From a virus, in IMG/VR virus record IMGVR_UViG_3300034073_004308, positions 1-44,620 of that record: DNA of 44,620 nt, one strand, 5' to 3'. Each line of letters begins with the position of its first letter. Within the stretch, counting starts at the first letter, position 1. Shown in pieces: positions 35,415-44,620 of this stretch. The translations under genes and the position numbers were made by a program. The notes under the pieces are model-generated. The model was given only the letters and a program-made list of their open reading frames with translations, was not told the origin of the DNA and made no database searches.

Positions 35415-37886
35415 ATGGGGGTGTCTGGTCTTTATGTAAAAGTTCTTGGAACCCCTATTGGTGGGATGTCCGAGGTCGATGGTGATGGGGACGGGTTTGT
35501 TAGCGGTCCGGGCGGTGACAAGTACCCCGCGCCGATAAAAAAGGCTGTTGATGGGCTTAACGAAATCCTTGTTCCTGCCAGCAATTTTGCTGAAGCAAAC
35601 AAAAAGAACCGACCTTGGGCGCCTTTACTGAGGGACGGGTGGACTCCCGAATTGCGCAAACAAATGGACGATGCGATTGATTTTGAGAAACGGTTAGCAC
35701 CGATAGCCGTCGCGTGGCTGAATAAATACGGAGACAATCCCAACGCACACAGTGTCATTGTGGCACTGTTCGACGGTGCACACAGCGTAATTGGGAACAG
35801 AGACGACCCGGATGGCAAAAAGTATTTTGAAGAATTACTGAAAAACCTTGGTGACGATGCAAACTCTAAAGAATCTCAAGATTTGTTGAAGTTCGTCAGG
35901 GATAACGGCGTTCCGGTAATGGCGCGCCACGCGAAAGTGAAAAAATGGAGCGATGATTACGTTAATCATGTAATTGAAGCGCTTAAACAAAACGGCGTGA
36001 AAGAAACACATCCGTTTTACAAAACGATGTTGGAGTACAAAAAATACGAAAATTCTCCCGCGCATTATCCAAACCCGATTGGCAGATGGTTGGGTCACAG
36101 CCTTATGGGGCTGGAGAAGAGCGGGAAAATTATTCAGTTCATGGCTGATGTGAAACGCGATGGCGCAGTCCCCGACGCAGATGAAGTTGCCAAAAAACTT
36201 GTAGAGAACAAAAATCGCCGAATTGGTATTGCCATATCTGAGGGTGGTCTGGAAAAGGTTTTGTCTGATGGGAAATACAAAAATTTGTTTGAAAATAATG
36301 GGCGGAATGCGTTCATTGATGCGTGGAAACTAGAGCGTAGGGATTCGCAAGAACGAAACAAATTAAGGAAGCAGATGGAGTTTCGTGCAGTTGCCGAACA
36401 GATGCTTTTTGGAATCCCTGTTGCTGGAAGCAAAAAATCTGCTCGTCCGGTGTACGGATTTTTTTTCGAGGATGGTGTTGAACAGATTGGCGTTAATGGT
36501 GGAACATATGGTCGTTTGACAATGGTTATGAAACGCGGTGTGGAAGAGCGTTCAACGATGACTGCCGGTGATTCGATTGCAGGACAATTTATGGGTGTTT
36601 CGCCACTAAATGACCCCAAGGGGATAGGTGTGCAGGGTGGCTGGGCGGGGACAGTGAATGACCAAAAGCCAGACTATTCGTCTTACAATAATCGATACTT
36701 CGAGGCTCAGATATTTGGCGGTGTAAAGATTGAAGATATCGCCTATATCGCTGTTCCTTTTAATTATAAGTTCGCGAATAAAGATGTTCAGAAACGGTTG
36801 GCTGAGTTGGGTGTTCCTATTCAGATTTTGCCAAGAGAAGGTAAATTTGTTGAACCGGGCGACCTTCAAGGCAAATCCGATAAGCGAGAGTCTGGTGTAC
36901 TGATTGCCGTTTCTGGTGAAGCAAGATTGTTTGAGGTTGACAAAGATGTCGGCTATCTGCTCGTGAATGGAGAAAGAATAGATGTTCCGAGTGTTTCAGC
37001 CGTGTTGAAATTCGGGTACTGGGATTTGGTTGATTCGGGAGAAAATGATAAAAAGAATTTGGCGGTGAAGGTTCTCGGTACGCCTATTGGCGGTATGTCT
37101 GAGATTGACGGCGACGGGGACGGGTTTGTTAGCGGTCCTGGTGGCGACAAATATCCTGCGCCACTAAAGCGGCAAATACGAGACTTAACTAAAGATTTGG
37201 CATCGCTATTTGGTAAAAGCAAAGATGAATTCGAAAAGTCTGAAGCAGGCAGAGAGTACAAACAAAGGCTCGAGAAAGTGCCAAAAGGTGTTGGTCGGGA
37301 TGTTCAGTTGGAAATGATTGCCGAAAAACAGGGATTCGATAAACCACCAAAGGTTGTCTCTGCGGATGAGATAGAGCGTCTCCGTAAAGAAGGTTGGATT
37401 ATTGCATATAGAGGATTAAGTACAGCCATGGTTGAGGGTGAAGATGGGAAAGGAACTGTCATAAAAGCGAAACAAATGGCTGACGATTTCAGAAGCGGTC
37501 AATATTTTGCGGGCATGGGGGTGCACGGCAACGGCATTAACTTTGCGCTAGATAGAGAAACTGCCGATATTTATGCTCAAGGGTTTTACGAAGACGGTGG
37601 CGAAGTGCTCGTTGTGGCAATTCCGCCAGACGCATTGATGTCTATCGAGGAAATGAAAAAAACAGTCGCCGAACATCGCGCGCGTATAGGGCGTGGGGAA
37701 ACAAATTTTTATGGTGATGACGATATAAGCCGTTCTTTGGCGGCGAGAGGTGTCAAGGGCACTAGGTTGAATGTTCTTGTTTCCAATGGTTGGGTCAGTG
37801 AAGTTGCTGAAGATAGTGATGCCGAACCAAATGTGGTTGTTGTTTACGATAGGTCAATGCTGGCAGTGCAGGAGAGGTCCAAATGA
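35415..37886 (+). CDS. Giant modular protein with two KVLGTPIGG modules and ADP-ribosyltransferase-like regions, 823 aa
   Basis: Two near-identical modules (residues ~8-44 and ~551-587) begin VKVLGTPIGGMSE and continue DGDGDGF and SGPGGDKYPAP, a calcium-loop-like D-x-D-G-D-G pattern. Between them, residues ~320-500 contain VEERSTMTAGDSI and NNRYFEAQIFGGVKIEDIAY, like the S-T and E-x-Q motifs of DUF3626/phage-type ADP-ribosyltransferase folds. After module 2, residues ~655-790 have IIAYRGLS, a FAGMGVHGNGINFALDRETA block and ARGVKGTRLNVLVSNG, again ART-like. Possibly a virion-borne effector. GTG at 35421 has TAAAAT six bases upstream and may be the true start. Confidence 0.76.
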   Translation: MGVSGLYVKVLGTPIGGMSEVDGDGDGFVSGPGGDKYPAPIKKAVDGLNEILVPASNFAEANKKNRPWAPLLRDGWTPELRKQMDDAIDFEKRLAPIAVAWLNKYGDNPNAHSVIVALFDGAHSVIGNRDDPDGKKYFEELLKNLGDDANSKESQDLLKFVRDNGVPVMARHAKVKKWSDDYVNHVIEALKQNGVKETHPFYKTMLEYKKYENSPAHYPNPIGRWLGHSLMGLEKSGKIIQFMADVKRDGAVPDADEVAKKLVENKNRRIGIAISEGGLEKVLSDGKYKNLFENNGRNAFIDAWKLERRDSQERNKLRKQMEFRAVAEQMLFGIPVAGSKKSARPVYGFFFEDGVEQIGVNGGTYGRLTMVMKRGVEERSTMTAGDSIAGQFMGVSPLNDPKGIGVQGGWAGTVNDQKPDYSSYNNRYFEAQIFGGVKIEDIAYIAVPFNYKFANKDVQKRLAELGVPIQILPREGKFVEPGDLQGKSDKRESGVLIAVSGEARLFEVDKDVGYLLVNGERIDVPSVSAVLKFGYWDLVDSGENDKKNLAVKVLGTPIGGMSEIDGDGDGFVSGPGGDKYPAPLKRQIRDLTKDLASLFGKSKDEFEKSEAGREYKQRLEKVPKGVGRDVQLEMIAEKQGFDKPPKVVSADEIERLRKEGWIIAYRGLSTAMVEGEDGKGTVIKAKQMADDFRSGQYFAGMGVHGNGINFALDRETADIYAQGFYEDGGEVLVVAIPPDALMSIEEMKKTVAEHRARIGRGETNFYGDDDISRSLAARGVKGTRLNVLVSNGWVSEVAEDSDAEPNVVVVYDRSMLAVQERSK

Positions 37887-40258
37887 TTTCAGTTATGTCA
37901 ATACAGGAATCTAGGGACTTGGCTAAAGCCGTACAGGTTTTGACTCCGAAACAGAAGGCTGATTTTTACTACTACACATTGGTGGAAAACGAAGAACCGA
38001 AAAAAGTAATGAAAAGAATCAAAAATGGTGCTGAACAATCAACAGAAGTCAAACATCACGGAGAGTTTATTGTAAAAGTTCTCGGTACCCCTATCGGTGG
38101 TGTCGCAGATTTCGATGGTGACGGCGACGGGTTCAGGACTGGTCCCGGCGGAGAGGACAATATCCCCTACACGCCACCTGTTGACGAATTGGTTTCCTTG
38201 TTTAAAAAAGTTTTCAACAAGGTCAGAAACCTCCGCTCTGACGAATCGGCAACAGTGAATAAACTCGAATCCCGCACACCAAGCAATGAGCAACAGCGTT
38301 CGCTAAAAGCAGCACAGAACATACTCAAGGCACACGCCGAAATCTATGAGCGGTACACCAACAAGTTTGGCGATTTGACCAAAAACGAGAACGCCGTAAA
38401 AGCACTCAAATCTGTTTATCCAAATTTGGGTGATTCTGAACGCGCATTGGAAGATGGGGAAATCGCGAGAGCATTCGATAATGAGCCTCCCACACCAGCG
38501 GATATGGGCTTATTTTTGACCCTGCTCCGAAGGGGCGAGGAGCGCCCAGATGTTGCCTCGTTGCTTCGCGGTATCTCTCGCCGAGGAGACAGAAATGCGG
38601 CGGTCAAATACGACGGTGTGGCGGGAATAATTTCCGACGGCATAAAAAGCATCAAGGATGACCAACAGCGCCCAATGATGTATTCGTATTTGGATTTCCC
38701 GCCAGACCTTTCAGTTGACGGAGCGGACATTTCCAACATGAATAAACGGTTGTGGGGAATTGAAAGGGAATTCCTGCTTCCATTGGAGCAGTTAGGGATG
38801 TCGGACGACCAACTTGACTATCTCTATGGTGCGTATGTTGCCGACCACGAGTTTGTGCACGCAGAACATTACTACACTTGGCTCACATCCCAAAAATTTG
38901 TTATCGAACCCAAAACCAAGTCCGATGTCGCACGAAATCTTTTGATTTTGCAGAATCTGCAAAAGGAAGCAACCGTTGGTGCAAAAAATCCTAATTTCAA
39001 CATAACCGACGCGGACATCAAAGAGATGGAGGAATTCATTGCTCAGGGCATAGGTGTCGTCAAGGAAGCCATGAAAAAATTGCCCGATGAGGCGATGCCG
39101 GCATTTAATGTTCCGAGCATCAGGGATGTTTTGAACGGCGATTTGCTTGACAAATATGGACGCGAAAATATACCTGATGACATTTTGTGGATTATGGCGG
39201 CGAACAGGTTGGTTACACACTTTATTTCCAACGATGCTTATGGAAATGCTTTTGTTAACAAAAACGGTGACCGCGACAGTATCTTGGGGGTTATTAGAGA
39301 CCCGAATAGTTATCAGTGGTCGTTGTGGTTTGACAATATTAATAGAAATATGATGTCTTTGATTTTTGGTGACAGAGGTAGGCGCATGGTGCGCACGTCC
39401 CCGTATGCCGGAGTCAATTTTTCTGAATGGGTTGCCGAACAGCGAGCGGCAGATAAAATCGGTTTGACGCCACCTCATGAAGAACTTGTTGATGCTTGGA
39501 GAAAAATGTCGTCGTGGATTGAAAAGAAGGAAGCCAAACGAGACAATGTTCATGAGCACTCTGGTTTGTCTTTCAGTAAAACTGGTGCAATTGAAATTTC
39601 GTTGTGTTCTGGTTTGGCTAGTGCGACACCGAGGAAAGAAAACAAAAATCAGCAATATTCTGTGGATGAAACCAAAGAATCGAAAGTTTTGCTTGACGCG
39701 ATAGCAAGTTTGGTTAGGCGTGTCTATAGAAGAGGAAAGAGAATCGCAAAGAAATTGAAGCGAAAGACGGGAGATGATATGTCTGTTTACAACCAAAGGG
39801 TTGCCGAGTTCTATCTTGTCCAATCGAATGCTGTCGATATTAAGGGTGAGTCCCCTTACACGAACAATGCTTTGCGTGAAAGAATCAAGGCACGGGTGAT
39901 GGCTGGAAGCGAAGGTGGCAGACCTGGGCAGTGGTCTGCTCGTAAAGCACAGTTGGTAGCCGTCAGATACCGTAAGGCTGGCGGTGGGTACAAGAAGGGT
40001 AAGTCGCCGAACAAGAAGCAACGCTCGTTGAAGAAGTGGACGCGTGAGAAGTGGCGTACTTCTGACGGCAAACCAGCGTTGCGTGGAGGCAAAATGCGCA
40101 GGTATCTGCCCGATAAGGTGTGGGGTCGTTTGACGCCTGCGCAGAGAGCGGCGACTAACCGCAAAAAGATTGAGGGCGACAAGAGGGGGCGACAGTTTGT
40201 GGCGAACACTACGATTGCTGAGCGGAGGGCTGCGAGTTACCGCAACAGGAAAAAGTGA
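37883..40258 (+). CDS. Giant protein with KVLGTPIGG module, HExxH motif and DUF5872-like C-terminus, 791 aa
   Basis: The third module copy lies at residues ~64-95 (VKVLGTPIGGVADFDGDGDG). A helical central region includes DHEFVHAEHYY near residue 325, an HExxH zinc-peptidase-type motif. The C-terminal ~100 residues (GQWSARKAQLVAVRYRKAGG, RSLKKWTREKWRTSDGKPAL, KVWGRLTPAQRAATNRKK) are lysine/arginine-rich and fit DUF5872, found in phages and giant viruses and probably nucleic-acid binding. The ATG overlaps the previous stop (ATGA). Likely a virion or DNA-associated protein. Confidence 0.78.
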   Translation: MISVMSIQESRDLAKAVQVLTPKQKADFYYYTLVENEEPKKVMKRIKNGAEQSTEVKHHGEFIVKVLGTPIGGVADFDGDGDGFRTGPGGEDNIPYTPPVDELVSLFKKVFNKVRNLRSDESATVNKLESRTPSNEQQRSLKAAQNILKAHAEIYERYTNKFGDLTKNENAVKALKSVYPNLGDSERALEDGEIARAFDNEPPTPADMGLFLTLLRRGEERPDVASLLRGISRRGDRNAAVKYDGVAGIISDGIKSIKDDQQRPMMYSYLDFPPDLSVDGADISNMNKRLWGIEREFLLPLEQLGMSDDQLDYLYGAYVADHEFVHAEHYYTWLTSQKFVIEPKTKSDVARNLLILQNLQKEATVGAKNPNFNITDADIKEMEEFIAQGIGVVKEAMKKLPDEAMPAFNVPSIRDVLNGDLLDKYGRENIPDDILWIMAANRLVTHFISNDAYGNAFVNKNGDRDSILGVIRDPNSYQWSLWFDNINRNMMSLIFGDRGRRMVRTSPYAGVNFSEWVAEQRAADKIGLTPPHEELVDAWRKMSSWIEKKEAKRDNVHEHSGLSFSKTGAIEISLCSGLASATPRKENKNQQYSVDETKESKVLLDAIASLVRRVYRRGKRIAKKLKRKTGDDMSVYNQRVAEFYLVQSNAVDIKGESPYTNNALRERIKARVMAGSEGGRPGQWSARKAQLVAVRYRKAGGGYKKGKSPNKKQRSLKKWTREKWRTSDGKPALRGGKMRRYLPDKVWGRLTPAQRAATNRKKIEGDKRGRQFVANTTIAERRAASYRNRKK

Positions 40259-40725: not shown

Positions 40726-41118
40726 ATGACGACAGAACTCACCAACAGTTACTATTTGCCGTTCGACACCTCACTCGCTGCCTGTCGAGGTAGTGCGGAA
40801 ATCAGTCTGTTCTATCCAAAAGGTGAGTCATCTGCTCATGTCCGTTCAAGGGAACAGAAGAAAGCGATTTCTATTTGCATGGGTTGTGAAGTTCGTGAAC
40901 CTTGTGCGGAGTATGCAATCAAAAACGAGTCATTCGGCATTTGGGGTGGCATGACGGAATCGGAACGCGAGTATCACCGCATCGAGCGAAACATCGCGCT
41001 GCCTCAGGGAACCGTTTCGGATGTTGCGAAACGAACACGGAGACTTTACAACGACAAGGAGAGCAAACGACGCAAACGGCAGGCGCTCGCTCTTCAGAAC
41101 AAAGAGGAAACCAAGTAG
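40726..41118 (+). CDS. WhiB-family iron-sulfur transcription regulator, 130 aa
   Basis: Four conserved cysteines (Cys20, Cys51, Cys54, Cys60 in CMGCEVREPC) for a [4Fe-4S] cluster, then GIWGGMTESER and a basic C-terminus (KESKRRKRQ) for DNA contact: the full WhiB architecture. WhiB-like proteins bind region 4 of the housekeeping sigma factor in Actinobacteria. Phage copies (for example WhiBTM4) can repress host whiB and affect superinfection. Transcribed with the primase, 3 bases downstream. Confidence 0.95.
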   Translation: MTTELTNSYYLPFDTSLAACRGSAEISLFYPKGESSAHVRSREQKKAISICMGCEVREPCAEYAIKNESFGIWGGMTESEREYHRIERNIALPQGTVSDVAKRTRRLYNDKESKRRKRQALALQNKEETK

Positions 41119-41121
41119 CCG

Positions 41122-42876
41122 ATGCCAAATGTTTCATCTCCAACAGTTCAGTCATTTTTGGACAAACTCAATGGTGTCCGAGCGACTGGTTCTGGTTGGC
41201 AGGCTCGATGCCCATGCAGGAACGACGATGACAATCCATCTCTTTCCATTGGGCAAGGCAATGACGGGCGCGTATTAGTCACCTGCCATCGCGGTGGCGG
41301 GTGCGATGTGGTGGATATTTGCAAATCGCTGAACATGAAAGTGACTGAGTTGTATCCGCCACGACAGGAAGAGCGGAAACTTTCCCTTATCGCGACATAC
41401 GATTACAGGAACGAAAAGGGTGAGTTGCTTTATCAAAAACAGCGGTTCGTTGACCAATGGAACAAGAAGACATTCATGCAACGGCGCCCCGACCCAGACA
41501 ATCCCAAAAAATGGGTGTACTCACTTAACGGTGTCACGAAAGTTTTATATCGACTGCCACAGGTTTTGAAAGCAAAATCAGACGGCGAGACCATATGGTT
41601 GGTCGAAGGAGAGAAAGACGCAGACAATCTCGTAAAACTTGGTTGGTGTGCGACGACACCACCGAATGGTGCAGGGAAGTGGCAGGACAATTTCACTGAG
41701 ACTTTGGCTAACGCAAATGTCTACATCGTTGCTGACAACGATGCCCCCGGACGCGAGCATTCCGACCATGTGGCGAGCGTATTGCGTGATGCGGGGTGCT
41801 CCGTTATTCAGTGGGTTCCGCCAGCGAAATACAAAGATGTTTCCGACTTGCTAGCCGATGGTGGCTCACTTAATGACCTCTTGGAGTCAAAAGATGCAGA
41901 GCCTCTAACTGAGTCTGAGGCAAAAGAAGAAGAATCCGAGGAGCAAGACGAAATAGCGGTGGAAGAAGCGACCAGTTCGCTTGCGTCTGTCGCTCAGCAG
42001 GTGACAAAAGTTCTTTTGCGTGATGACCTCTCTGAAGATACCCGTATCGCGCGAGCGTCAATGCTTCTTAATCAAATAAACACCGAAAACGATTACGACA
42101 AGGGTCGTTTGGTCAATTGGCAAGAATTTTTGGGTGAGTCTGCTGATGAAAGTTATGATTGGGTAATTCCGCAACTTGTTGAGCGAGGCGAACGAATAAT
42201 GGTCGTCGCAGCCGAAGGTGTCGGAAAAACGATGCTCGCCAGACAGGTCGCCATTTGTGCTTCCGCTGGTTTGCATCCCTTCAATTTTTCTCGAATCAAA
42301 CCAATCAGGACTTTGACGATAGACCTAGAAAACCCTGAGAGAATCATCCGTAGAACATCGGCGAATATTATGGGTGCGGCTGTCAGGTTCGGTCATGTCA
42401 AATCAGTCGACGCTCATATTCTCATCAAGCCTGCTGGACTGAATCTATTGACGGCGAAAGACCGTCTTGTCGTTGAAGAAGCGGTTGAGACCATTAAGCC
42501 CGACATGCTGTTCATCGGACCTATCTACAAGTCGTTCATCGACCCAGGTGGACGAACATCTGAGGCTGTTGCGGTTGAGGTCGCTCGGTATTTTGACATG
42601 ATTCGCGACTACTACAACTGCACGCTTTGGCTTGAGCACCACGCCCCCCTCGGTACTTCTATGAGTACAAGGGATTTGCGTCCGTTTGGGTCTGCGGTTT
42701 GGTCGCGGTGGCCAGAGTTCGGTTTGGCTTTACACCCTGATGCGACTGCTGTTGGTGAATATGTTTACGATGTCCGCCATTTCCGTGGTGCCCGTGATGA
42801 GCGACCATTCCCGACTAAACTTAAGAGAGGGAAAGTTTTCCCGTTTGAACTGCTTGATTTGAGAGAACCAATATGA
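41122..42876 (+). CDS. Primase-helicase: CHC2-like zinc finger, TOPRIM, RecA-like ATPase, 584 aa
   Basis: N-terminal zinc module CPCRNDDDNPSLSI ... CHRGGGCD (Cys30, Cys32, Cys55, Cys61). TOPRIM domain with VEGEKDADNL (Glu162, ~158-170) and VADNDAPG (Asp205, Asp207). An acidic linker (~255-285) precedes a RecA/RepA-like ATPase with AEGVGKT (364-370) and a Walker B-like DMLFIGPIYK segment. It should synthesise primers and unwind or load at the phage fork. No ribosome site is seen. Downstream candidate terminase overlaps by ATGA. Confidence 0.92.
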   Translation: MPNVSSPTVQSFLDKLNGVRATGSGWQARCPCRNDDDNPSLSIGQGNDGRVLVTCHRGGGCDVVDICKSLNMKVTELYPPRQEERKLSLIATYDYRNEKGELLYQKQRFVDQWNKKTFMQRRPDPDNPKKWVYSLNGVTKVLYRLPQVLKAKSDGETIWLVEGEKDADNLVKLGWCATTPPNGAGKWQDNFTETLANANVYIVADNDAPGREHSDHVASVLRDAGCSVIQWVPPAKYKDVSDLLADGGSLNDLLESKDAEPLTESEAKEEESEEQDEIAVEEATSSLASVAQQVTKVLLRDDLSEDTRIARASMLLNQINTENDYDKGRLVNWQEFLGESADESYDWVIPQLVERGERIMVVAAEGVGKTMLARQVAICASAGLHPFNFSRIKPIRTLTIDLENPERIIRRTSANIMGAAVRFGHVKSVDAHILIKPAGLNLLTAKDRLVVEEAVETIKPDMLFIGPIYKSFIDPGGRTSEAVAVEVARYFDMIRDYYNCTLWLEHHAPLGTSMSTRDLRPFGSAVWSRWPEFGLALHPDATAVGEYVYDVRHFRGARDERPFPTKLKRGKVFPFELLDLREPI

Positions 42877-43706: not shown

Positions 43707-44525
43707 TTACACCCCAAAATCTGTGTTGATTACGGGGTGTGGTTGGTTCATCATTTCCGATTTCGGCGGCAGTTTTTCAACCAGCAACAATCTGAGCATC
43801 CACCTGTCTGTTCCGTCGTATCGCGGCTGGAAAGGTTTGCGACCATGAACCAACTTTCTGTTGTTGATGATGAAAACATCACCAGATTCGAGCGCAATTT
43901 CCCTCGTTTTTGATTCCACCACATACCTCAAAGCACGAAGAGCACGCTCCGCGACAGCGTTTTCGCCCGTCATCAAATCATCGTCGTAACACAACTCCAA
44001 TCCGTTCGAACCGTCTTCCAAAATAGGCAGACGAATCATTCTGTGTTTCTCTCCGTTGCGCCTAAAACTTTCGTCTGTGGTCGTAAAAAACTGTGGTTTG
44101 CGCAATTCCAGAATCGTCTCATTATCCAAATCACGCAAAATGTCACTGCAAAGCGCATAAGTGGTGAACGCGTTTTCATCTCCACGCAAACACATCAGGA
44201 TAATCCAGTCAGGCTTATAAGGGTGAAACGCTGTCTCTGTGTGGAGTTTGAGAATCGTCTTTGACGACGAAGACATTTGCGAATACTCGGTTTTGGGATT
44301 AGGGAGAACATGTTGTATGAGACGACCGTTTTGTTCCTGTGCATACCCGACTGGAATTCCGTAGTGTGCACCAAATTTCAAAAGCAACTTGCGTGCCTGT
44401 TCCACAACATCATCACTTGGTGGAACCGTTGGGGTGGGTGGTATGTGCCCTATCTCTGCATCTTTCACCAACACAAATGATGGCTGTGCATCATGATGGT
44501 CAAGAATCGCTATTCGGCGTTCCAT
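43707..44525 (-). CDS. Fe(II)/2-oxoglutarate oxygenase, VioC/clavaminate-synthase-like, 272 aa
   Basis: LKLHTETAFHPYKPDWIILM holds the iron ligands His95 and Glu97; the distal His is in KLVHGRKPF (His227); WMLRLLL carries the 2-oxoglutarate-binding Arg (~241/245). The HTETAFHPYKPD wording is close to the arginine or asparagine hydroxylase and clavaminate synthase family. These hydroxylate free amino acids or small peptides in natural-product pathways. An auxiliary gene in a phage is unusual. The ATG at 44525 has GAGAAGAGAG upstream; GTG at 44549 is possible. The stop is 1 base from the convergent membrane gene. Confidence 0.88.
   Translation of the reverse strand: MERRIAILDHHDAQPSFVLVKDAEIGHIPPTPTVPPSDDVVEQARKLLLKFGAHYGIPVGYAQEQNGRLIQHVLPNPKTEYSQMSSSSKTILKLHTETAFHPYKPDWIILMCLRGDENAFTTYALCSDILRDLDNETILELRKPQFFTTTDESFRRNGEKHRMIRLPILEDGSNGLELCYDDDLMTGENAVAERALRALRYVVESKTREIALESGDVFIINNRKLVHGRKPFQPRYDGTDRWMLRLLLVEKLPPKSEMMNQPHPVINTDFGV
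43709..43740. terminator. Inverted repeat over convergent gene ends
   Basis: ACACCCC/GGGGTGT, 7-bp stem with an 18-base loop, at the end of the oxygenase gene and 4 bases after the membrane-protein stop. Weak terminator candidate. Confidence 0.3.
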
Positions 44526-44620
44526 CTCTCTTCTCTTTTTTGTTTGCACGCGTTCTCGGCATGTCGTGGGTTCTGAGGGGGTGACCGTACGGCAAGCGAG
44601 TGCGTTTCTTGCCAGCCTTG
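44500..44620 (-). CDS. C-terminal end of a basic protein, cut by window edge
   Basis: An open frame enters from the right edge and ends at TGA 44500. The visible end KAGKKRTRLPYGHPLRTHDM then RTRANKKEKRDG is strongly basic, like the tail of a DNA-binding or capsid-associated protein. It overlaps the oxygenase start by 26 bases. Only 39 residues are visible, so it may be spurious. Confidence 0.32.
   Translation of the reverse strand, partial: KAGKKRTRLPYGHPLRTHDMPRTRANKKEKRDGTPNSDS

What the first reader, a model, noticed from the sequence alone, without database searches (positions are those of the whole stretch)
43707..44525. Amino-acid oxygenase of the VioC/clavaminate-synthase type in a phage
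HTETAFHPYKPD is close in wording to free-amino-acid hydroxylases used in antibiotic pathways. It lies next to packaging-type genes on the opposite strand, so it is probably a transferred auxiliary gene. It might modify a host metabolite, a virion residue or a modified nucleotide.
Basis: partly seen in the sequence, partly recalled or inferred. Interest (0 to 1): 0.66.

Follow-up and report, generated by a model that had tools for sequence, protein, structure and literature searches.

The report
Phage-borne free amino-acid hydroxylase
This lake-type phage carries a compact, selected-for copy of the iron enzymes that actinobacteria use to put an oxygen on a free, positively charged amino acid (lysine or arginine type), and hundreds of other uncultured viral contigs carry relatives of it, so a gene usually labelled 'taurine dioxygenase' in phages probably acts on amino acids instead.

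Summary
[quoted passage not shown] The model (pLDDT 93) matches only CSL enzymes at Z 25-31; the next fold scores 19.6. All three iron ligands, both 2OG arginines and every residue by which KDO1 grips L-lysine are present. These residues are invariant in 35 distinct viral homologs, most only about 42-55% identical to it. dN/dS is about 0.05. IMG/VR holds at least 347 viral relatives. They form their own clade with a short chromosomal form from Acidimicrobiia, outside all characterised enzymes. Best reading: beta (C3) hydroxylation of a free basic L-amino acid, L-lysine most likely. In chromosomal sister genes a threonine aldolase lies downstream in 14 of 24 loci, so beta-hydroxylation followed by cleavage to glycine plus an aminoaldehyde is the likeliest pathway; the phage would supply the first step, the host the aldolase. 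Not supported: packaging neighbours (terminase ~32 kb away; neighbours are replication genes), nucleotide modification, collagen-like virion hydroxylation. Substrate and physiological role are inferred, not shown.

The parts
43707..44525 (-). CSL-family Fe(II)/2OG amino-acid oxygenase, 272 aa. Ligands H95, E97, H227; 2OG arginines R241, R245; T121; substrate contacts E64, S85, D151, S153, D181
44500..44620 (-). 3' part of a conserved 70-aa basic ORF (family C15), overlapping the oxygenase start by 26 bases; its 5' end lies beyond the right edge; homolog also near the oxygenase gene of phage DSL-LC01
43505..43705 (+). 66-aa ORF with a hydrophobic stretch, convergent with the oxygenase
   Evidence: shared with L005 and L006 at 42% identity
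42873..43505 (+). 210-aa HTH protein (family C11), unassigned; PHROG 645 match
41122..42876 (+). DNA primase/helicase
   Evidence: phrog_239, E 3.5e-31
40726..41118 (+). WhiB-like gene, pointing to an actinobacterial host
   Evidence: identified by sequence pattern only; conserved family in 17 of 35 viral loci

Best explanation
[quoted passage not shown] Fe(II), held by H95, E97 and H227, and 2-oxoglutarate, held by R241, R245 and T121, activate O2 to hydroxylate, most likely at C3 (beta), a free L-amino acid with a positively charged side chain: L-lysine first choice, L-arginine or L-ornithine next. The alpha-amine is held by E64 and E97, the carboxylate by R245 and S85, the side chain by D151 and D181. 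In the cell the beta-hydroxy amino acid is probably cleaved by a host threonine aldolase to glycine plus an aminoaldehyde, which would turn basic amino acids into glycine and one-carbon units for phage nucleotide synthesis. Shown: reading frame, fold family, ligands, invariance of the substrate-contact set, selection, spread in phages, clade. Inferred: exact substrate, C3 position, aldolase step in the phage-infected cell, benefit to the phage. The confidence given is for the enzyme activity (hydroxylation of a free basic amino acid); for the full glycine shunt it is about 0.25.
For: AlphaFold2 model pLDDT 92.9. Foldseek best is KDO1 with lysine, TM 0.87-0.89. VIA-align Z: KDO1 31.2, VioC 31.1, CmnC 30.4, AsnO 30.1, OrfP 29.7, clavaminate synthase 28.6, KDO5 26.3, next fold 19.6. 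KDO1 contact residues as given in PMC6224419 mapped on the alignment: all 11 positions invariant in 35 distinct viral proteins, and the D..S..D basic side-chain sub-pocket distinguishes them from AsnO. Tree: 35 viral + 6 short chromosomal proteins one clade, 100/99 support; long Acidimicrobiia forms and all characterised enzymes outside (quick tree). Chromosomal context: AsnC/Lrp-type regulator divergent in 6 of 6 short forms; L-threonine aldolase (PF01212; PDB 5vye 6e-77) same strand downstream in 14 of 24 distinct long-form loci, 10 of them within 75 bp or overlapping. A PF01212 gene is also present in 8 of 8 genomes with the short form. NCBIfam's best partial match is GntD, whose pathway partner GntG is the best partial NCBIfam match of these aldolases.
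Against: No assay. No NCBIfam equivalog cut-off is reached (GntD 171 of 345 bits, VioC 144 of 419). KDO1 places outside the phage clade on a long branch. At P16 (D183) most viral proteins have F, S, Y or T, so not all need share one substrate. The aldolase link is in the chromosomal sister clade, not in the phages: 0 of 21 phage records hold PF01212, and the short chromosomal forms are not linked to it. Threonine aldolase is nearly universal in that bacterial family (106 of 121), so only the adjacency, not co-occurrence, is informative.
Confidence: 0.72

Rival explanations
1. Building-block reading: the same free-amino-acid hydroxylation, but the product is not broken down. It is used to decorate a phage or host surface polymer (glycan, teichoic or peptidoglycan precursor), altering adsorption or superinfection.
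For: In the AT-rich phage lineages (L078, L105, L107, L099, L074) the gene is followed by glycosyltransferase and methyltransferase genes, some with a second TauD-type gene close by. In DSL-LC01 it lies next to a methyltransferase, a mannosyltransferase and VanY.
Against: These neighbours are absent in the window lineage and in the ferredoxin-bearing lineage; no partner is conserved across lineages. No enzyme that would activate or transfer an amino acid was identified.
Confidence: 0.15
2. Protein hydroxylase: it hydroxylates lysine or arginine residues in small basic phage proteins or in collagen-like tail fibres.
For: A 70-aa basic protein overlaps the gene start, and K-rich small ORFs lie close by in several lineages. 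The virus has a collagen-like tail fibre with 42 Gly-X-Y units.
Against: The residues that bind the free alpha-amine and alpha-carboxylate are invariant. Enrichment of K-rich ORFs near the gene is seen in only two of five large contigs, of one lineage type. The most frequent residues at X and Y of the collagen-like repeat are Ala, Pro, Thr and Val, with no lysine among those listed.
Confidence: 0.06
3. True taurine/sulfonate dioxygenase (TauD) serving sulfur supply, as phage tauD genes are read in the literature.
For: Pfam name TauD. Published reading of viral tauD in a freshwater layer as a sulfur-starvation gene (PMC9469726).
Against: PF02668 is a broad superfamily. Solved-structure matches by sequence are all amino-acid oxygenases of the CSL family down to 1e-20, and the only structures at Z above 20 are CSL enzymes. 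A basic side-chain pocket with two Asp does not suit a sulfonate.
Confidence: 0.03
4. Modified-nucleotide enzyme acting on phage DNA.
For: Neighbouring DNA methylase and replication genes.
Against: No Tet/JBP or other nucleic-acid dioxygenase family is hit, and the amino-acid site is invariant. The gene sits away from the replication block in G010, while that block stays together.
Confidence: 0.02

Closest known systems
KDO1, L-lysine 3-hydroxylase (PDB 6f2a)
   Same: Best fold and sequence match among solved structures; identical residues at every published lysine, 2OG and iron contact (E, S, H, E, T, D, S, D, H, R, R)
   Different: About 29% identity; KDO1 is longer (358 aa against 272); separate clade in the tree; phage location
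VioC / OrfP, L-arginine beta-hydroxylases
   Same: Same family, ligands, basic side-chain pocket; VIA Z 31.1 and 29.7
   Different: P2 residue Gln in VioC/OrfP, Glu in all phage proteins; below the VioC equivalog cut-off; separate clade; no antibiotic cluster nearby
GntD, L-enduracididine beta-hydroxylase
   Same: Best NCBIfam score (171 bits); chromosomal sister genes sit beside a GntG-like threonine aldolase, as in a hydroxylase-then-aldolase pathway
   Different: Half of the curated cut-off (345); no other pathway genes in the phage
AsnO and clavaminate synthase
   Same: Same fold and chemistry (Z 30.1 and 28.6)
   Different: AsnO lacks the side-chain Asp (Pro at D151 position); clavaminate synthase has Leu at P2 (PMC6224419)
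TauD/TfdA dioxygenase of Actinomycetia phage DSL-LC01 (WJZ48424.1)
   Same: 47% identical, same compact form and same active site; also close to a homolog of the 70-aa basic gene
   Different: Annotated but not discussed: the words dioxygenase and TauD do not occur in the genome paper PMC10611076

Membership tests
Clavaminate-synthase-like (CSL) free amino-acid oxygenases | CSL jelly-roll fold | tested here: met
   Z 24.7-31.2 to CSL entries against at most 19.6 to others; TM 0.74-0.89 normalised by the query
Clavaminate-synthase-like (CSL) free amino-acid oxygenases | His-X-Glu...His iron triad | tested here: met
   H95, E97, H227; 35 of 35 viral proteins
Clavaminate-synthase-like (CSL) free amino-acid oxygenases | P18 and P19 arginines for 2OG and substrate carboxylate | tested here: met
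   R241 and R245, 35 of 35; definition from PMC6224419
Clavaminate-synthase-like (CSL) free amino-acid oxygenases | P2 Gln/Glu binding the alpha-amine | tested here: met
   E64, 35 of 35
Clavaminate-synthase-like (CSL) free amino-acid oxygenases | DXXD sub-pocket for positively charged side chains | tested here: met
   D151 and D181, 35 of 35
Clavaminate-synthase-like (CSL) free amino-acid oxygenases | Hydroxylates a free amino acid | not testable with these tools
   needs an enzyme assay
Clavaminate-synthase-like (CSL) free amino-acid oxygenases | Dimer through helices alpha2, alpha3 and alpha8 | not tested
   Only the monomer was modelled; the phage form lacks an N-terminal stretch present in long forms
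VioC arginine beta-hydroxylase (TIGR03946) | Curated equivalog cut-off 418.6 bits | tested here: not met
   143.7 bits
GntD (NF041363) | Curated equivalog cut-off 345 bits | tested here: not met
   171.5 bits
KDO1 lysine 3-hydroxylase | All lysine-contact residues of the crystal structure | tested here: met
   E97, R245, D151, D181, S85, S153
KDO1 lysine 3-hydroxylase | Clusters with KDO1 in a tree | tested here: not met
   KDO1 outside the phage clade, on a long branch
Phage DNA-modifying (Tet/JBP) dioxygenases | Match to a nucleic-acid dioxygenase family | tested here: not met
   Only TauD, CsiD and a weak CBS match in Pfam at E up to 1

The most novel reading that the evidence does not exclude
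Phages of freshwater actinobacteria carry the first enzyme of an amino-acid-to-glycine shunt: a viral beta-hydroxylase makes 3-hydroxylysine (or the arginine or ornithine equivalent), the host threonine aldolase splits it into glycine and an aminoaldehyde, and the glycine feeds purine and one-carbon synthesis during infection. A large share of viral 'tauD sulfur genes' in lakes would then be amino-acid metabolism genes.
Probability: 0.25. Interest if true: 0.78.

Novelty: new variant of a known kind. Interest (0 to 1): 0.6.

Why it matters
CSL hydroxylases are known from antibiotic and natural-product pathways of bacteria. Here is a compact clade spread over several unrelated phage lineages, with the whole amino-acid binding site under strict conservation, which implies that phages gain from hydroxylating a host amino acid. 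It gives a testable alternative to the habit of reading viral TauD-domain genes as sulfur-scavenging genes, points to a hydroxylase-plus-aldolase pathway in Acidimicrobiia, and offers small oxygenases for biocatalysis.

Tried and rejected
Single-sequence scan of genome contigs found no relative; the alignment scan did. Threonine aldolase in the phages themselves: none in 21 records. Lysine-rich small proteins as substrates: enrichment near the gene only in two of five contigs, not used. Collagen-like tail fibre as substrate: no lysine among the listed X/Y residues. Suspicion that the short chromosomal homologs (L108-L113) are misbinned phage contigs: rejected, they sit with GroEL, kdsA/kdsD/kdsB-type genes and an AsnC-type regulator. 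A fixed partner gene across all phage lineages: none found. In the quick tree VioC carries the wrong label 'oC_vir' through a naming slip in my script; the tree is labelled correctly. Two annotation calls failed on frame errors and were not needed. Literature searches found no report of a phage CSL enzyme, in an open-access library only.

Full report
WHAT IS THERE. The minus-strand frame 43707-44525 opens with ATG at 44525 and encodes 272 aa. The frame is open further upstream, but in three related phages that stretch belongs to a conserved 70-aa gene in another frame that overlaps the start by 26 bases, so the short product is real. The window is a fragment of an IMG/VR virus; the same gene lies, 100% identical, in contigs of 100 and 133 kb. 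Against the 88% relative dN is 0.067 and dS 1.22.

WHICH FAMILY. Pfam gives TauD (5e-16) and CsiD. By sequence the solved relatives are KDO1, OrfP, AsnO, VioC, clavaminate synthase and CmnC. The AlphaFold2 model (pLDDT 92.9, pTM 0.90) has KDO1 as best Foldseek match. In VIA-align every entry with Z above 20 is a clavaminate-synthase-like (CSL) enzyme (24.7 to 31.2); carbapenem synthase follows at 19.6. Equivalog cut-offs of VioC, clavaminate synthase and GntD are not reached, so it is a CSL member but of none of these named subfamilies.

ACTIVE SITE. The KDO1/KDO5 structure paper (PMC6224419) lists the contacts. Mapped on the alignment: iron H95, E97, H227 (KDO1 178, 180, 314); 2OG R241 and T121 (328, 204); substrate carboxylate R245 and S85 (332, 168); alpha-amine E64 at position P2 and E97; lid S153 (236); side-chain ammonium D151 and D181 (234, 268). 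All of these are identical in 35 of 35 viral proteins that differ by more than 10% from each other and are mostly 42-55% identical to the window protein. VioC and OrfP have Gln at P2, AsnO has Pro at the D151 position. The paper ties the DXXD pocket to positively charged side chains. Position P16 (D183) is Asp in the window and KDO1, but F, S, Y or T in most phages, so the exact substrate may vary.

SPREAD AND ORIGIN. A profile scan of IMG/VR found 347 encoding contigs, of which 80 were read (the viral loci fall into 35 clusters at 90%). A named-genome hit is Actinomycetia phage DSL-LC01, whose paper never mentions the gene. In a careful tree the 35 viral proteins are one side of a branch (91/76), and with six short chromosomal proteins from Acidimicrobiia-type genomes form a clade at 100/99; 22 long Acidimicrobiia proteins form another (99/90); VioC, OrfP, AsnO and KDO1 lie outside. 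The viral and short chromosomal forms share the compact N-terminus. The gene moves: phage G010 shares the primase/C11/C17 block with the window lineage, yet its oxygenase lies 40 kb from that block. Direction of transfer between phage and host is not resolved.

NEIGHBOURS. Window lineage: an unassigned 213-aa gene, MazG, the 70-aa basic gene and the oxygenase run in one direction; on the other side, convergent, lie an HTH gene, the primase/helicase and a WhiB-like gene (WhiB by sequence pattern only). The large terminase and portal genes are at 22.8-26.6 kb of the 133-kb contig, about 30-32 kb from the oxygenase at 56.4 kb, so the 'packaging' remark fails. AT-rich lineages: followed by glycosyltransferases and methyltransferases. 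No partner is constant, which fits a small-molecule substrate provided by the host.

CHROMOSOMAL RELATIVES. All six short forms have an AsnC/Lrp-type regulator divergently adjacent. In one bacterial family sampled evenly, about 30 of 121 genomes hold a homolog. Of 24 distinct long-form loci, 20 have an RpiR-type regulator gene just upstream (19 divergent) and 14 a threonine aldolase downstream on the same strand; 10 of these are within 75 bp or overlapping, with oxygenases 50-93% identical. The RpiR type was confirmed by Pfam in one member (L116). The aldolase identity is supported by PF01212 and by PDB L-threonine aldolase 5vye at 6e-77. Control: the aldolase is present in 106 of 121 genomes, so co-occurrence proves nothing; adjacency and overlap do the work. 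Threonine aldolases cleave beta-hydroxy amino acids (general knowledge), which argues for C3 hydroxylation in the sister clade.

MECHANISM. Shown: fold (by prediction), complete site, conservation, selection, clade. Inferred: L-lysine (or arginine, ornithine) plus O2 plus 2OG gives the 3-hydroxy amino acid, succinate and CO2; a host threonine aldolase, with PF01212 present in 8 of 8 genomes with the short form but in 0 of 21 phage records, could yield glycine and an aminoaldehyde. The benefit for the phage (glycine and one-carbon supply beside MazG and a ribonucleotide reductase) is a hypothesis at about 25%.

NOVELTY. Chemistry and fold are known; a phage-wide compact CSL clade with a KDO1-type site was not found in the open literature searched. 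Freshwater viral tauD genes have been read as sulfur-starvation genes (PMC9469726); whether those particular genes belong to this clade was not tested.

Noticed in passing
window 35415-37886 and 37883-40258: Two large adjacent proteins carry the repeated motif LGTPIGGxxxxDGDGDGFxxGPGG (twice in the first, once in the second), an EF-hand-like acidic loop; the second ends in a DUF5872-like, Lys/Arg-rich tail. Their function is unclear.
   Followed up: no
window 44500-44620 and L004:7814-8026: Conserved 70-aa basic protein (family C15) next to the oxygenase in seven loci and 2-3 kb away in two more; no Pfam or PHROG match. In DSL-LC01 that reading frame is not the one annotated.
   Followed up: partly
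L105:6970-7761: Second TauD-family oxygenase (PF02668 1e-28) about 1 kb upstream of the CSL gene in AT-rich phages; a similar ORF in L106.
   Followed up: no
L048, L060, L072, L073 and other viral loci: Small ferredoxin-like gene (family C13, ten loci, about 1.8 kb from the oxygenase), identified by sequence pattern only.
   Followed up: no
L239, L243, L246 and 10 more chromosomal loci: A WhiB-like gene follows the threonine aldolase in 13 of the 14 oxygenase-aldolase loci.
   Followed up: no
L109-L112 chromosomal contigs: Genes resembling KDO-sugar synthesis (kdsA, kdsD, kdsB types) beside the short oxygenase in Acidimicrobiia-type actinobacteria, unusual for this phylum.
   Followed up: no
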